Assembly (NCBI GenBank): GCA_027449865.1
Contig: DAIDKV010000270.1
Coordinates: 1 to 49,632, forward strand
DNA length: 49,632 nt
Direction of reading: 5' to 3'
Source of the DNA: Planctomycetales bacterium
GTDB taxonomy: Bacteria > Planctomycetota > Planctomycetia > Isosphaerales > Isosphaeraceae
Position 1 is the stretch's first letter. Each line of letters starts with the position of its first letter. The notes beneath the pieces are model-generated. The model saw nothing but the letters and a program-made list of their open reading frames with translations, searched no databases and was not told the origin of the DNA. This document shows, piece after piece, positions 27,666-37,364 of the stretch. A program made the position numbers and the translations under genes.

Positions 27666-29180
27666 TCAGGCCATCGCCGTCGGCGGCGGGCTCAGCCCGG
27701 AGAGCCGCTCGTGCACCCGCCGGAACAGCGACGCATACGGGCAGCTGCTCGCCAGGCTCACCCACACCTTCCGCACCGTCACCCGCACCAGCGCACCGAT
27801 CTTCAACAGCTTCAGCCGAATCGTCTGGCATTGCGCGTCGGCCATCTCTGTACCCGACAGTCCCAGCCGCCGCAGCGCCTCCAGGAGCACATACGCCACC
27901 GACGAGAAGAACAAGCGGATCTGGTTCGCTCGCATCGTCGCACAGCTCGTCCGGTCGGCGAAGAGATGGAGCTGCTGCTCCTTGATCCGATTCTCCATCT
28001 CGCCCCGGGCGCAGTAGTCCTCCTCGTACAGCGCCCGCGCCTCGCGGCGATCGACCGACAGCGATGTCACCACGAACCGCGGGTTGGCCCCCTTGGGCAG
28101 GTGCTCCGCCTTGGCGATCACCCGCCGCAGTCGGCCCCAACTGGTCAGCGTCCGGTAGCCGAACTCGGCGAAGACCCGCGCCGGCTCCTCGGTGCGCCGG
28201 TACTCCTGCCGGGCCCGTTCCGATGGCTCGGTGATCAGCTCGAGCAGCCGCTTGTTCTGGGCCAGCCCGAAGAGGAAGTCCACGCCGTTGGCCTCGCACC
28301 AGGTCATGATCGGCTCGCGGCAGAACCCGCTGTCGCCGCGGATCAGGATCTTGACCTCCGGCCAGGCGCGGCGGATCGCCGCGATGATCCGCTGCAAGTG
28401 CTTCAGCGCCCCGGCCGCACCGTCGATGTCCGAGGGCCGCAGCTTGGCGCAGAGCAGCTGATCGCCGCAGAAGATGTACAGCGGGAGATAGCAATATCCC
28501 TTGTAGTAACCGTGGAAGAAGCGGCCGAGTTGCTGACCGTGGGTCGGATCGTCGGTGGCGTCGAGGTCCAGCACGATCGACTCCGGTGGCCGCGCATGCG
28601 ACCGGAGGAATAACTCCACGAAGAGGTCGTCGACGCGCTTGGTCGAGCAGGTGACCTTCTTGTAGCGGTCGGTCCGATCGGCGCCGACGGGGGTCAACTC
28701 GATGCGGTTGAGCGTGCTCTTGCCGGCCAGGGCCTTGCCGCGATCGGACCGGCGACGTCGGCCGATACCCTTGGGATCGGTCTTGCCGACGACGGTGGCC
28801 AGCAGCGGGTCGAGTCGGAGGTCGTCGTGGTCGTTGAGGTCCTCGTAGCCCAAGGCCAGGGCATAGACCCGCTGGGCGACGAGGTGCTCCAGCGGGTGCT
28901 CGATCAGCTCAGGATCGCGGTGGTCGGTGAAGCAGGCGGCGAACTGTCGGAGGATGCCGGTGGCCTGCTCGACCTGGCGGAGGAGCAGGGCGCCGCCGTC
29001 GGAGGAGATGTCGCCGCCGTCGAAGGCGGCCTTGACCTCGCGGGGCCCGAGGGCGGGGAAGTCGAGGTAGATGGAATCCTGGGCCGCGTCGGGGAGGACG
29101 ATCGAGTCCGGACGGGTGGCCCGGCGGGATCGGGAGCGGGTGGATTTGCGGGCGGCGCCGGGGTTACACTGTGTCGGCAT
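27666..29180 (-). CDS. IS1380 transposase (DDE, IS4-like YREK motif)
   Basis: 504 residues from ATG 29180, with AAAGGA about eight bases upstream; a GTG at 29219 in the same frame is less likely. The DDE catalytic set can be placed: Asp207 in IVLDLDATDDPTHG, Asp283 in IRGDSGFCREP, and Glu396 in YCARGEMENRIKEQQ, the latter a Y-x2-R-x3-E signature. The N-terminus begins with a basic, Arg-rich region. No frameshift or stop was seen. It cuts and pastes the element; its translation start lies in a strong hairpin, described separately. Confidence 0.95.
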   Translation of the reverse strand: MPTQCNPGAARKSTRSRSRRATRPDSIVLPDAAQDSIYLDFPALGPREVKAAFDGGDISSDGGALLLRQVEQATGILRQFAACFTDHRDPELIEHPLEHLVAQRVYALALGYEDLNDHDDLRLDPLLATVVGKTDPKGIGRRRRSDRGKALAGKSTLNRIELTPVGADRTDRYKKVTCSTKRVDDLFVELFLRSHARPPESIVLDLDATDDPTHGQQLGRFFHGYYKGYCYLPLYIFCGDQLLCAKLRPSDIDGAAGALKHLQRIIAAIRRAWPEVKILIRGDSGFCREPIMTWCEANGVDFLFGLAQNKRLLELITEPSERARQEYRRTEEPARVFAEFGYRTLTSWGRLRRVIAKAEHLPKGANPRFVVTSLSVDRREARALYEEDYCARGEMENRIKEQQLHLFADRTSCATMRANQIRLFFSSVAYVLLEALRRLGLSGTEMADAQCQTIRLKLLKIGALVRVTVRKVWVSLASSCPYASLFRRVHERLSGLSPPPTAMA

Positions 29181-29250
29181 CGGGTGTCCTTTCGCGAGGG
29201 ACGTAGGTGGTTGCGACACAAGTATCTACGTCTCGAAAGGCACCCGATGC
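29177..29250 (-). promoter_or_regulatory. Hairpin hiding the IS1380 transposase ribosome binding site
   Basis: In the transposase mRNA the 5' arm 29250-29234 (GCATCGGGTGCCTTTCG) pairs with 29194-29177 (CGAAAGGACACCCGATGC) with a single bulge. A further 7-bp stem (GACGTAG/CTACGTC, 29200-29206 with 29226-29232) lies inside. The AAAGGA and AUG are both in the 3' arm. Transcripts entering from outside would fold and not be translated, a known self-protection of insertion sequences. Confidence 0.7.
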
Positions 29251-33235: not shown

Positions 33236-34732
33236 GTGACGCGACCGGGACCCGATTCGTTGGCGGCGATTTTGAAGCGGTGCGGGATCGCGATGGAGAC
33301 CGGGGCCATCGATCGGCTCTGGCGGTATCACCGGATGCTGCGAGAGGCGAACCTTCGGCTGAACCTGACGCGCATCCACAACTTCGAGAACATGGTGCTG
33401 AAGCACTATGTCGACAGCCTACTGGTCCTCCGGTTCGCCGAGCTTCCCTCGCCGATCATCGACATGGGCTCAGGACCGGGCTTGCCAGGAATCCCTCTGA
33501 AGATCGCCCGGCCGGGCGTTCGGATGATCCTGGCCGAGCCGCGCGGGGCGCGAGCCGAGTTTCTCCGCGAGGTCATCGGCGAGCTGGGGCTCGAAGGGGT
33601 CGAGGTCTACGCGCACAAGGTCGGGGCCGACTATCCCGAACAGGTCGCCAGCGTGATCACCCGGGCGGTCGCGACGATCCCCGAGACGCTCGACCGCGTC
33701 GCCGGATGCCTCTCGCCCGGCGGGAAAATGCTCTTCATGAAAGGACCCGGCTGCGACGACGAGATCGCCGAGGCCAACCGCACCCACGCCGAGGCCTTCC
33801 GCCTCCTTAACGACCACGCCTACGCGATCCCCGGCACCGACCACCTTCGCCGGCTGGTCGTCTACGAGCGGCTGGAAGGGGATGTCCTGCCGACCCGGGG
33901 AGGTCGGTCGACCGCGGTCCCGGCCGAATCATTCGCCGGCGAGGTCCGCGAGATCGCGAGCCCGTCGAACCCGACCTTCCGCGTTTTGAAATCGGTGCTG
34001 GGCGGCCCAGGCATCCGCGAACACGGCGAGGCGATCCTGGCCGGATCCCGCATCCGAGACGAGGTCGTCGACCGCTACTCCGACCGCGTCGCCGGGTGGA
34101 TCACCGACGCCGATGGCCCACCGCCGCCGAACGCGTCGATCCCCTGGCTCCGCCTCTCGGCCCCACTCTTCAAGGAGGTCGATGTCTCGGGAACGCATTC
34201 GCCGCTGCTGCTGGTGAAGGTCCCCGCGATGGAGACCTGGGACGACGCCGCGCCCTGGCCGGACGGCTGCACGCTCTTCGTCCCGTTCCAGGACCCAGAG
34301 AACGTCGGCGCGGTGATCCGGTCGGCGGCGGCCTTCGGCGCGGCGAGAGTGGTGCTGCTGAAGGAGGCGGCGCACCCGTTCCATCCCCGGAGCAGCCGAG
34401 CCGCCGGCCCTGCGCTCTTCCAGGTTGCGATCCAGAGGGGACCGCGCCTTGCCGACCTGAGATCGGCCGCCGTCCCACTGATTGCGATGGACACGACCGG
34501 CACCGAGCTCTCCGAGGCCCCGTTCCCAGACCGCTTCGGCCTGGTCGTCGGCGTCGAGGGTCCAGGCCTGCCCCCCCACCTGCGGGCGGGCAACCGACGA
34601 AGGATCGCGATGCAGCCTGGCGTCGAATCCCTCAATGCCGCCGCCGCCGCCGCGGTGGCGCTCTATGTCTGGTCACGATCCGCCCGACCGGGCGAACACC
34701 AGATTACTTCTTCTCCCGCTTCAGCTCCGTGA
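33236..34732 (+). CDS. rsmG: RsmG-SpoU fusion, putative double rRNA methyltransferase
   Basis: 498 residues from GTG 33236. Residues 1-215 are RsmG (16S rRNA m7G527 methyltransferase): LRLNLTRIHNFENMVLKHYVDSL, SAM loop IIDMGSGPGLPGIPLK, and EPRGARAEFL. A linker (216-240) leads to a SpoU-type 2'-O-methyltransferase: substrate-binding-like part 245-335, then the knotted SPOUT core with motif 1 DPENVGAVIRSAAAFGAARV, motif 2 GLVVGVEGPGLP and motif 3 IAMQPGVESLNAAAAAAVALY. Both catalytic domains look complete and in one frame. RsmG is normally a stand-alone protein. The end overlaps the convergent TIGR03067 gene by 29 bases. Confidence 0.95.
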   Translation: MTRPGPDSLAAILKRCGIAMETGAIDRLWRYHRMLREANLRLNLTRIHNFENMVLKHYVDSLLVLRFAELPSPIIDMGSGPGLPGIPLKIARPGVRMILAEPRGARAEFLREVIGELGLEGVEVYAHKVGADYPEQVASVITRAVATIPETLDRVAGCLSPGGKMLFMKGPGCDDEIAEANRTHAEAFRLLNDHAYAIPGTDHLRRLVVYERLEGDVLPTRGGRSTAVPAESFAGEVREIASPSNPTFRVLKSVLGGPGIREHGEAILAGSRIRDEVVDRYSDRVAGWITDADGPPPPNASIPWLRLSAPLFKEVDVSGTHSPLLLVKVPAMETWDDAAPWPDGCTLFVPFQDPENVGAVIRSAAAFGAARVVLLKEAAHPFHPRSSRAAGPALFQVAIQRGPRLADLRSAAVPLIAMDTTGTELSEAPFPDRFGLVVGVEGPGLPPHLRAGNRRRIAMQPGVESLNAAAAAAVALYVWSRSARPGEHQITSSPASAP

Positions 34733-35138
34733 CAATCTGCTCGAAGCCGATCTGCTCATACTTCTCGGGACGCTCGCCAATGGCCCGGAAGCAGAAGATA
34801 AACTGGTCGTCGCCGTTGAACTTGTAAATCCCCTTGCAGGTCTTCCCCTTCGCATCGTCGGGGCCCTCATTGATCTTCAGATCAATCGACTTCTCCGGCT
34901 TCGCCGAGGCATCGAGAACCACGGTCATCTCGTAGCTTCGGCTCGGAGCCTCAACCTTCACCTTGTCGCCCTGAAAGGTGTAAACCACCTTCTCACCGGG
35001 TGCACCTGATGGGGCGATCCACTTCCCTTCCAGCTTTTTCAGATCGCCTCCGTCCTTCGCCTCAGCACCACCCGCCAGCCGACCGGCCACGAAGAAAACA
35101 GCCAGCCCCAGACCCATCCAATGACGTCGCGTCAACAT
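34704..35138 (-). CDS. TIGR03067-like small exported protein
   Basis: 144 residues from ATG 35138 (the frame starts at 35180). The start has RRHWMGLGLAVFFVAGRLAGGAEA, a signal segment with an Arg pair. DLKKLEGKWIAPSGAPGEKVVYTFQGDKVKV resembles the lipocalin-like TIGR03067 repeat common in planctomycetes (LxGxW...GxK...F...). Function unknown. The last 29 bases overlap the end of the rsmG fusion on the other strand, so convergent transcripts form antisense RNA there. Confidence 0.8.
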   Translation of the reverse strand: MLTRRHWMGLGLAVFFVAGRLAGGAEAKDGGDLKKLEGKWIAPSGAPGEKVVYTFQGDKVKVEAPSRSYEMTVVLDASAKPEKSIDLKINEGPDDAKGKTCKGIYKFNGDDQFIFCFRAIGERPEKYEQIGFEQIVTELKREKK

Positions 35139-35423
35139 CGTCTCTCCCTCGTTCTCACGAGTCCTCCCGGGCCTTCTCAAATCCTCCGGACGCTCCAGCG
35201 GAATCGTTATAGCCCGTCATCCTAAGCGGCGACAATCCAGAAGTTCGGGAGTCCCAGCAAGAGCCTCAGACCGGGACGACCCTCTTGAAGCGATAGGCCA
35301 CCTAAGGTTAACTTTGGATCGTCAAGCTTTGTCGAATCATCGTCGGACGGGACGTGGCGCACCTGGACAGAATGCGTGCCGACGCGAGGATTCGGACGGC
35401 CGATCAGCGAGGGAGGAAGATTC

Positions 35424-36257
35424 ATGGCGAACAATCTGGACGCCTTGCTGGCTCGGGCCCGGTCGATCCGGGAAGACATCGTCAGGATGACGACCGAGGC
35501 CGGATCGGGGCATCCCAGTAGCTCGATGTCGGCCGCCGAGGTGGTCACCGCGCTTTATTTCGGCGGGTTCCTCAAACACGATCCCAAGAATCCCACCTGG
35601 CCGGATCGCGACCGGTTCATCCTCTCGAAGGGCCACGCCGCGCCGGTGCTTTATGCGGCACTGGCGCAGGCGGGATATTTCCCCCACGACGAAATCATGA
35701 CCCTCCGCAAAATTGACAGTCCGGTCGAGGGTCACCCGAACATGAAGCGACTGCCGGGCGTTGAAGCTTCAACCGGCTCGCTGGGCCAGGGGCTCTCGAT
35801 CGGCGTGGGCCATGCGCTGGCGGCCCGGGTCGACGGCAAGGGTTACCACACCTACGTGATGACCGGCGACGGCGAGATCGAGGAGGGACAGATCTGGGAG
35901 GCCGCGGCTTCGGCGTCAAAGTACCAGCTCGACAACCTCACCCTGATCGTCGACCGCAACCACTACCAGCAGACCGGCCCGGCTGAGGAGGTCCTGAACA
36001 TGGACCCGATCGATGGCAAGTTCGCCGCCTTCGGCTGGAAGACCCAGGTCATCAACGGCAACGACATGCGCGAGGTCTTGCAGGCCCTTGAACGGGCTAG
36101 TGAGATCAAAGGAATGCCGACCTGCATCGTTTCTCTGACCCACAAGGGCCAGGGGATGCTCAACCTCCTCCGCAAGCTGGGCGACACCAACTTCCACGGC
36201 AAGCCCCTGCCCGCCCAGAACCTCAACGAGGCCCTCGCCGAGATCGCCGCAAGCTGA
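35424..36257 (+). CDS. Transketolase, N-terminal subunit
   Basis: 277 residues from ATG 35424 (GGGAGGAAGA upstream). It carries the thiamine-diphosphate half of transketolase: EAGSGHPSSSMSAAEVVTALYF, SKGHAAPVLYAALA, GSLGQGLSIGVGHALA and the GDGEIEEGQIWEAAASAS motif. The C-terminal half is coded separately downstream. The enzyme moves two-carbon ketol units in the non-oxidative pentose-phosphate and related pathways. Split transketolases are known in archaea and several bacteria. A 126-base gap separates the two parts. Confidence 0.95.
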   Translation: MANNLDALLARARSIREDIVRMTTEAGSGHPSSSMSAAEVVTALYFGGFLKHDPKNPTWPDRDRFILSKGHAAPVLYAALAQAGYFPHDEIMTLRKIDSPVEGHPNMKRLPGVEASTGSLGQGLSIGVGHALAARVDGKGYHTYVMTGDGEIEEGQIWEAAASASKYQLDNLTLIVDRNHYQQTGPAEEVLNMDPIDGKFAAFGWKTQVINGNDMREVLQALERASEIKGMPTCIVSLTHKGQGMLNLLRKLGDTNFHGKPLPAQNLNEALAEIAAS

Positions 36258-36383
36258 GGTGCAAAGTCCCGCGATTGGAGAGCCGGCGGCCATCCTCGAC
36301 GGTCGCCCCGATCCCTTCCATCCTTCGATCGCCACGCGGCGCCCGGTCGATCCCACAATCTTACCCAGAAAGGTGATTCCCCG

Positions 36384-37364
36384 ATGGCCGGTGCTTCCTC
36401 CGGGCTACAGTCGAATCGAGAGCTGGGCAAGGCCACCCGCGACGCGTTCGGCCGGGCGCTCGAGGCGCTCGGGGCCGATCACCCCGAGGTCGTTGTCGTG
36501 GACGGCGACGTCGGCAACTCGACCCGGACCGAGTGGTTCGGCAAGAAACATTCCGACCGCTTCTTCAACGTCGGGATCGCTGAGAGCAACCTCGTCGGCG
36601 TCGCCGCCGGGCTCGCCTCGTCGAACAAGACCGCCGTGATCGCCAGCTTCGCCGCCTTCATCACCTGCAACGCGTATGACCAGCTTCGGATGTCGGTCGC
36701 CTATCCCGGGCTAAACGTCAAGGTGGTCGGCAGCCACGCCGGGATCTCGATCGGCGAGGACGGTGCCTCGCAGATGGGAATCGAGGACGTCGCGCTGATG
36801 TGTGCACTCCCCGGCTTCGTCGTCATCGTCCCGGCCGACGAGGAATCGGCGAAGGCGGCGACGAAGGCGATGCTCGAATACAAGGGGCCCGTGTATCTCC
36901 GATGCGGACGACCCGAGGTTCCGAAGATTTACTCCGCGGATCAGGTCTCGTTCCAGATCGGCAAGGCGAACAGGCTACGCGACGGCCGGGATCTGACGAT
37001 CGCGGCGAACGGGATCATGGTGGCGATGGCCCTCGACGCCGCCGAGGCGCTGGCCGCCGAGGGGATCGAGGCCCGCGTGCTGGACATGCACACGGTCAAG
37101 CCCATCGATCGCGACGCCCTTCTGACTGCGGCGAAGGAGACTGGTGCGGTGGTCGTCGCGGAGGAGCACCTTGCGCACGGCGGACTGGGGAGCGTGGTCG
37201 CCTATACCCTGGCTGAGACGCACCCGGTGCCGATCCGGTTCGTCAACCTGCTCGACACCTTCGCCGAGAGCGGCGCCCCCGAGGCCCTGCTCAAGAAGTA
37301 TGGCCTGACCGCCGAGAAGATCGTCGAGGCCGGCCGCTCGGCCGCCGGGGCGAAGAAGCGGTAA
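36384..37364 (+). CDS. Transketolase, C-terminal subunit
   Basis: 326 residues. Pyrimidine-binding half with ELGKATRDAFGRALEAL, FFNVGIAESNLVGVAAGLAS (Glu that activates the cofactor), HAGISIGEDGASQMGIEDVALM and a C-terminal transketolase domain (LTIAANGIMVAMALDAAEAL, VLDMHTVKPIDRDALL). It pairs with the preceding N-terminal subunit. The stop is nine bases from that of the convergent DUF4058 gene. Confidence 0.95.
   Translation: MAGASSGLQSNRELGKATRDAFGRALEALGADHPEVVVVDGDVGNSTRTEWFGKKHSDRFFNVGIAESNLVGVAAGLASSNKTAVIASFAAFITCNAYDQLRMSVAYPGLNVKVVGSHAGISIGEDGASQMGIEDVALMCALPGFVVIVPADEESAKAATKAMLEYKGPVYLRCGRPEVPKIYSADQVSFQIGKANRLRDGRDLTIAANGIMVAMALDAAEALAAEGIEARVLDMHTVKPIDRDALLTAAKETGAVVVAEEHLAHGGLGSVVAYTLAETHPVPIRFVNLLDTFAESGAPEALLKKYGLTAEKIVEAGRSAAGAKKR

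What the first reader, a model, noticed from the sequence alone, without database searches (positions are those of the whole stretch)
33236..34732. RsmG fused to a SpoU-type RNA methyltransferase
A single 498-residue frame carries RsmG (m7G of 16S G527, Rossmann fold) followed by a full SPOUT 2'-O-methyltransferase with motifs 1-3. Two unrelated methyltransferase folds on one chain suggests that two rRNA (or rRNA and tRNA) marks are coupled. I know RsmG only as a stand-alone enzyme.
Basis: partly seen in the sequence, partly recalled or inferred. Interest (0 to 1): 0.62.

Follow-up and report, generated by a model that had tools for sequence, protein, structure and literature searches.

The report
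Fused RsmG-like and SPOUT RNA methyltransferase
One protein carries two different RNA-methylating enzymes; it is not a local oddity but an old two-in-one enzyme found in three bacterial phyla, and its first half is a relative of the ribosome enzyme RsmG rather than RsmG itself, so the two marks it writes are unknown and worth mapping.

Summary
Window 33236-34732 (+) encodes 498 aa: a GidB/RsmG-type Rossmann methyltransferase (res 27-183) followed by an L30e-like domain and a SpoU/SPOUT 2'-O-methyltransferase (res 350-477). Two near relatives (91-92%) have the same open frame, so it is not an assembly error. About 45 species carry both halves in one frame. In Isosphaeraceae all 45 genomes searched have one real GidB, in a fusion-sized frame in 44; full-length fusions also occur in 29 of 395 Desulfobacterota and about 59 of 247 Spirochaetota genomes. 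The interpretation needs correction. The N-half is a separate clade (100/100 support), 'GidB2', apart from canonical RsmG, and most Desulfobacterota and Spirochaetota carriers keep a canonical RsmG as well; m7G527 cannot be read off the homology. The C-half resembles RlmP/RlmR/MRM3-type 23S enzymes, not RlmB or TrmH. Both active sites are conserved. Each half also exists alone; in two genomes both halves are separate genes. A divergent RluA-family pseudouridine synthase gene is the usual neighbour in Desulfobacterota. Best reading: a dual rRNA methyltransferase working like E. coli RlmKL, targets unknown. New variant of a known kind; no description found in the held literature.

The parts
33236..34732 (+). 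fusion gene, GTG start, 498 aa, GidB2-SpoU2
   Evidence: orthologues L005-L021 and others
33236..33877 (+). N-terminal Rossmann methyltransferase half, RsmG-like ('GidB2'), residues 1-214
   Evidence: Pfam GidB; VIA-align Z 24.9 (rmsd 2.7, 217 aligned) to B. subtilis GidB and 24.6 (rmsd 2.3, 218 aligned) to Thermus RsmG; tree
33461..33490 (+). AdoMet-binding motif DMGSGPGLPG (residues 76-85)
   Evidence: D76, G78, G80, G82 invariant in both GidB2 and canonical rows
33878..33940 (+). linker, low model confidence (residues 215-235)
   Evidence: pLDDT below 50 at 219-229; variable in alignment
33941..34225 (+). L30e-like RNA-binding domain of the SpoU half (about residues 236-330)
   Evidence: structure alignments from residue 235-243 onward to RlmP, RlmR, AviRb; no Pfam domain called here
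34259..34687 (+). SPOUT 2'-O-methyltransferase catalytic domain (residues 342-484)
   Evidence: Pfam SpoU_methylase at 34283-34666
34301..34321 (+). SPOUT motif 1, N356 to R362
   Evidence: invariant
34550..34567 (+). SPOUT motif 2, G439, E441, G444
   Evidence: invariant
34625..34636 (+). SPOUT motif 3, ESLN, residues 464-467
   Evidence: S465 and N467 invariant (one deviating row at N467)

Best explanation
It is an old dual RNA methyltransferase. The N-half (GidB2) is a Rossmann enzyme derived from the RsmG family, expected to methylate N7 of a guanosine. The C-half (SpoU2) is an L30e-SPOUT enzyme expected to methylate a ribose 2'-OH in rRNA, most probably 23S, and, as SPOUT enzymes dimerise, to bring two GidB2 domains into one complex. 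The two marks are probably placed in one early assembly step on one rRNA region, as E. coli RlmKL does in helix 74. The GidB2 target was probably not 16S G527 in the ancestor, because carriers usually keep a separate RsmG; in Isosphaeraceae, where canonical RsmG is missing, GidB2 may have taken G527 over or G527 may be unmethylated. Shown here: fusion, conservation, intact motifs, separate clades, coexistence with RsmG, split forms. Inferred: activity, targets, dimer, coupling.
For: Domains and motifs. Model with pLDDT 88.9 whose halves match RsmG and RlmP/RlmR/AviRb. Distribution in three phyla. GidB2 clade 100/100 apart from RsmG. Coexistence with canonical RsmG. SpoU2 clade 100/100 outside RlmB, with RlmP and 2i6d nearer. 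The distances of the two halves correlate at rho 0.86, 0 of 1000 permutations as high, so they were inherited together. An RluA-family pseudouridine synthase is the divergent neighbour in nearly all Desulfobacterota fusions with enough flank, which fits an rRNA-modification locus. RlmKL precedent: PMC11194073.
Against: No activity or target data. In Isosphaeraceae and family f36 GidB2 is the only GidB, which fits replacement of RsmG at G527. Stand-alone and split forms show that physical coupling is not required. The interdomain arrangement is poorly defined (pTM 0.60).
Confidence: 0.5

Rival explanations
1. GidB2 is a functional RsmG: it makes m7G527 of 16S rRNA, and the fusion ties a decoding-site mark on the 30S to a 2'-O mark on 23S rRNA. 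Canonical RsmG was displaced in Isosphaeraceae; elsewhere the two are redundant or used at different times.
For: Sole GidB in 45 of 45 Isosphaeraceae, in f87 and in f36 genomes. TIGR00138 score above the equivalog cut-off. E. coli R139, K165, R197 equivalents fully kept. His57 (E. coli H53) is kept in Isosphaeraceae, f36 and f87 but is Leu in the main Desulfobacterota clade.
Against: Coexists with canonical RsmG in most Desulfobacterota and Spirochaetota carriers. Separate clade with a long stem. E. coli K100, 91% K in canonical RsmG, is Ala in Isosphaeraceae.
Confidence: 0.33
2. The GidB2 half no longer methylates and serves as an RNA-binding or assembly module for the SPOUT half.
For: Some changes at canonical positions (W34, K100, R123 of E. 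coli). RNA modification enzymes can have methylation-independent roles in assembly (RlmB, RlmKL; PMC11194073).
Against: The AdoMet motif and R139, K165, R197 equivalents are invariant. GidB2 survives alone as the sole GidB in f36 planctomycetes.
Confidence: 0.08
3. The fusion is an assembly or gene-calling artefact, or a chance read-through.
For: Two relatives are frameshifted.
Against: About 45 species with both halves in one frame, at 39-92% identity, several in finished genomes.
Confidence: 0.01

Closest known systems
RsmG/GidB, 16S rRNA m7G527 methyltransferase (E. coli 1jsx, Thermus 3g88, B. subtilis 1xdz)
   Same: Fold, AdoMet motif, R139, K165 and R197 equivalents, over the TIGR00138 cut-off
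   Different: Separate clade, long stem, K100 not kept, fused to a SPOUT enzyme, and usually beside a canonical RsmG outside the planctomycetes
RlmP (YsgA, Gm2553), RlmR (Um2552), AviRb (Um2479), MRM3: L30e-SPOUT 23S rRNA methyltransferases
   Same: L30e-like N-domain plus SPOUT domain, the same five catalytic residues, best structural matches
   Different: Only about 20-27% identical, own clade (100/100), carries GidB2 at its N-terminus; target unknown
RlmKL (YcbY), E. coli m7G2069 + m2G2445
   Same: Two methyltransferases on one chain, one of them m7G; halves are separate genes in other bacteria
   Different: RlmKL joins two Rossmann enzymes; here a Rossmann and a knotted SPOUT enzyme, from other families
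TrmD-Tm1570 fusion (PMC11187310)
   Same: A fusion of two RNA methyltransferases, SPOUT included
   Different: Both halves are SPOUT; tRNA target

Membership tests
RsmG (16S m7G527) | Scores above the NCBIfam equivalog cut-off TIGR00138 | tested here: met
   120.3 vs 99.5 bits
RsmG (16S m7G527) | AdoMet motif and conserved R139, K165, R197 (E. coli numbering) | tested here: met
RsmG (16S m7G527) | K at E. coli position 100 | tested here: not met
   Ala105 in the window; 91% K in canonical rows
RsmG (16S m7G527) | Groups with canonical RsmG in a tree (orthology) | tested here: not met
   GidB2 clade 100/100; coexists with RsmG
RsmG (16S m7G527) | Methylates G527 | not testable with these tools
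   needs m7G mapping
L30e-SPOUT 2'-O-methyltransferase (RlmP/RlmR/MRM3/AviRb type) | L30e-like domain followed by SPOUT domain | tested here: met
L30e-SPOUT 2'-O-methyltransferase (RlmP/RlmR/MRM3/AviRb type) | Catalytic N, R, E, S, N of motifs 1-3 | tested here: met
L30e-SPOUT 2'-O-methyltransferase (RlmP/RlmR/MRM3/AviRb type) | Specific 23S target (G2553 or U2552) | not testable with these tools
   needs RiboMethSeq or mass spectrometry
RlmB (Gm2251) | TIGR00186 cut-off and grouping with E. coli RlmB | tested here: not met
   46.7 vs 160.15 bits; outside the RlmB clade (100/96)
SPOUT enzymes | Trefoil knot and homodimer | not tested
   fold match only

The most novel reading that the evidence does not exclude
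GidB2-SpoU2 writes an undescribed pair of rRNA marks: an m7G at a site other than G527 and a nearby 2'-O-methyl, in a modification locus with an RluA-type pseudouridine synthase, in three phyla; and a whole family, Isosphaeraceae, has lost canonical RsmG, one of the most conserved rRNA methyltransferases, and lives with this enzyme instead.
Probability: 0.4. Interest if true: 0.65.

Novelty: new variant of a known kind. Interest (0 to 1): 0.5.

Why it matters
RsmG is reported among the most conserved 16S rRNA methyltransferases (PMC4119055), and its loss gives low-level streptomycin resistance (Okamoto et al. 2007, cited there). Automatic annotation by TIGR00138 or Pfam would name this protein RsmG and predict m7G527. 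The evidence here says that call is unsafe in three phyla. The natural set (fused, split in one genome, GidB2 alone, SpoU2 alone, with and without canonical RsmG) makes the question 'why are two rRNA methyltransferases joined, and which marks do they write' directly testable by mapping rRNA of a few cultured strains.

Tried and rejected
Artefact: rejected by about 45 relatives with both halves. SpoU half as RlmB or TrmH: rejected by tree and cut-offs. First neighbourhood run was swamped by antisense ORFs in high-GC DNA and was redone with non-overlapping ORFs. Single origin of the fusion: on the GidB tree fused rows as one clade is not rejected (p-AU 0.49); on the SpoU2 tree it is borderline rejected (p-AU 0.046), so stand-alone SpoU2 genes are more likely losses or fissions, but this is not firm. 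FtsJ/RlmE search: no strong RlmE in the Isosphaeraceae or other Planctomycetia tested, present in Desulfobacterota carriers and f36; suggestive about A-loop marks, not decisive. The 'Kiritimatiellae' fusion (L022, 1 of 240 genomes of its phylum) nests among Desulfobacterota: transfer or misbinned contig, not counted as a fourth phylum. Literature: searches for RsmG or GidB with SpoU/TrmH and fusion found no description of this architecture; subscription papers are mostly not held. A search on streptomycin and Isosphaeraceae gave nothing I followed.

Full report
Observation. The reading frame at 33236-34732 (+) is open for 498 codons from a GTG. Pfam finds GidB at residues 27-183 (2.4e-35) and SpoU_methylase at 350-477 (1e-23), both above curated cut-offs. 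PDB sequence matches are RsmG/GidB for the N-half and TrmH-family enzymes for the C-half. The predicted structure (pLDDT 88.9, pTM 0.60) has two confident halves and a disordered linker around 219-229. By VIA-align the N-half matches B. subtilis GidB (Z 24.9) and Thermus RsmG (Z 24.6); the C-half, from residue about 235, matches S. meliloti 5kzk, RlmP/YsgA, RlmR and AviRb (Z 22.7-23.9; these Z values are close to ties), so it includes the L30e-like RNA-binding domain and not only the SPOUT core.

It is not an artefact. A scan of genome contigs returned 47 relatives, about 45 of which carry both halves; two near relatives at 92 and 91% identity have the same frame. Two are frameshifted (L042, L047) and one is cut by a contig end (L045).

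Distribution. In Isosphaeraceae, 45 of 45 genomes from 21 genera have exactly one GidB match above the cut-off, in a frame of at least 481 aa in 44 (the exception, 377 aa, is the frameshifted Singulisphaera GP187); 20 planctomycete species were confirmed as carrying both halves by tblastn, one of them the frameshifted one. In the wider Planctomycetota sample of 392 genomes, full-length matches were found in 4: two Isosphaeraceae and two of another family, f87. In Desulfobacterota 29 of 395, in Spirochaetota about 59 of 247 by my count of the rows, in the phylum of the 'Kiritimatiellae' MAG 1 of 240.

The N-half is not canonical RsmG. On a tree of 95 GidB domains the fused halves and their stand-alone relatives form one clade at 100/100 with a stem of 1.44 changes per column; all canonical RsmG, including those from the same Desulfobacterota genomes and E. 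coli, Thermus and M. tuberculosis, lie outside. By my count of the tables, 24 of 32 fusion-bearing Desulfobacterota genomes and about 30 of 42 Spirochaetota have a second, normal-size GidB; the rest may be incomplete MAGs. Two enzymes with the same target are unlikely to be kept side by side across two phyla (inference), so GidB2 probably has another target there. In Isosphaeraceae, f87 and f36 it is the only GidB. Residues: AdoMet motif, R139, K165 and R197 of E. coli RsmG are conserved in GidB2; K100 is not.

The C-half. The five SPOUT catalytic positions N356, R362, E441, S465, N467 are invariant in practically all of 73 rows. In the tree SpoU2 is a clade (100/100) outside the RlmB clade, on the side of RlmP and P. 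gingivalis 2i6d; its sister L194/L195 carries Pfam MRM3-like_sub_bind. The own genome has two other SpoU genes, a TrmL type and an L30e-TrmH type. Desulfobacterota carriers have RlmB-type genes and RlmE-type FtsJ genes as well, so there SpoU2 is probably not the Gm2251 or Um2552 enzyme; Gm2553 or another 23S site is the best guess (inference).

Fused, split and reduced forms. In G782 and G687 both halves exist as separate genes on interior stretches of different contigs. Ten further Desulfobacterota genomes have SpoU2 alone, without GidB2 but with canonical RsmG. Planctomycete family f36 has GidB2 alone. An RluA-family pseudouridine synthase gene lies divergently next to the fusion in 35 of 36 Desulfobacterota-type loci with enough flank by my count, next to GidB2 alone in several f36 and f97 genomes and in the split genomes (L161, L163), and next to four SpoU2-alone genes (L164, L168, L170, L172). 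So reduced forms sit at what looks like the ancestral locus. It is absent next to the window gene and in most Spirochaetota examined. The SpoU2 tree needs 5 fused/alone changes; fused rows as one clade are borderline rejected (p 0.046), while the GidB tree does not reject it. The two halves' distances correlate at 0.86.

Mechanism. The most likely picture is a dual rRNA methyltransferase like E. coli RlmKL, whose two domains act in one helix, occur as separate proteins in other bacteria, and where one half stimulates the other (PMC11194073). SPOUT enzymes of this type act as dimers on early, protein-poor rRNA (RlmR, PMC12123411). Activity, targets and coupling are inferred, not shown.

Verdict. 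New variant of a known kind, interest 0.5.

Noticed in passing
window 35376-37364 (+): Transketolase is split into two consecutive genes (Transketolase_N at 35376-36257; Transket_pyr plus C-terminal domain at 36384-37364).
   Followed up: no
window 27666-29219 (-): IS-type DDE transposase (DDE_Tnp_1_4, 1.6e-161) about 4 kb from the fusion gene.
   Followed up: no
window 34704-35180 (-): TIGR03067-domain protein, convergent with and overlapping the 3' end of the fusion gene by 29 bases.
   Followed up: no
L044 3202-3993 (-) and equivalents: RluA-family pseudouridine synthase, below every equivalog cut-off, divergent neighbour of the fusion in nearly all Desulfobacterota and of GidB2 in f36 planctomycetes; target unknown.
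   Followed up: partly
L042 (Singulisphaera sp. GP187), L047 (Desulfosarcina cetonica): Frameshifts within the SpoU half and at the domain junction; sequencing error or real decay not decided.
   Followed up: no
L022 / G004: 'Kiritimatiellae' MAG contig whose fusion nests among Desulfobacterota; transfer or misbinning.
   Followed up: partly
G000, G844, G847, G812, G820, G834, G838, G333, G407, G193: No strong RlmE (FtsJ) match in the Isosphaeraceae and other Planctomycetia genomes tested, while f36 and Desulfobacterota have one.
   Followed up: partly
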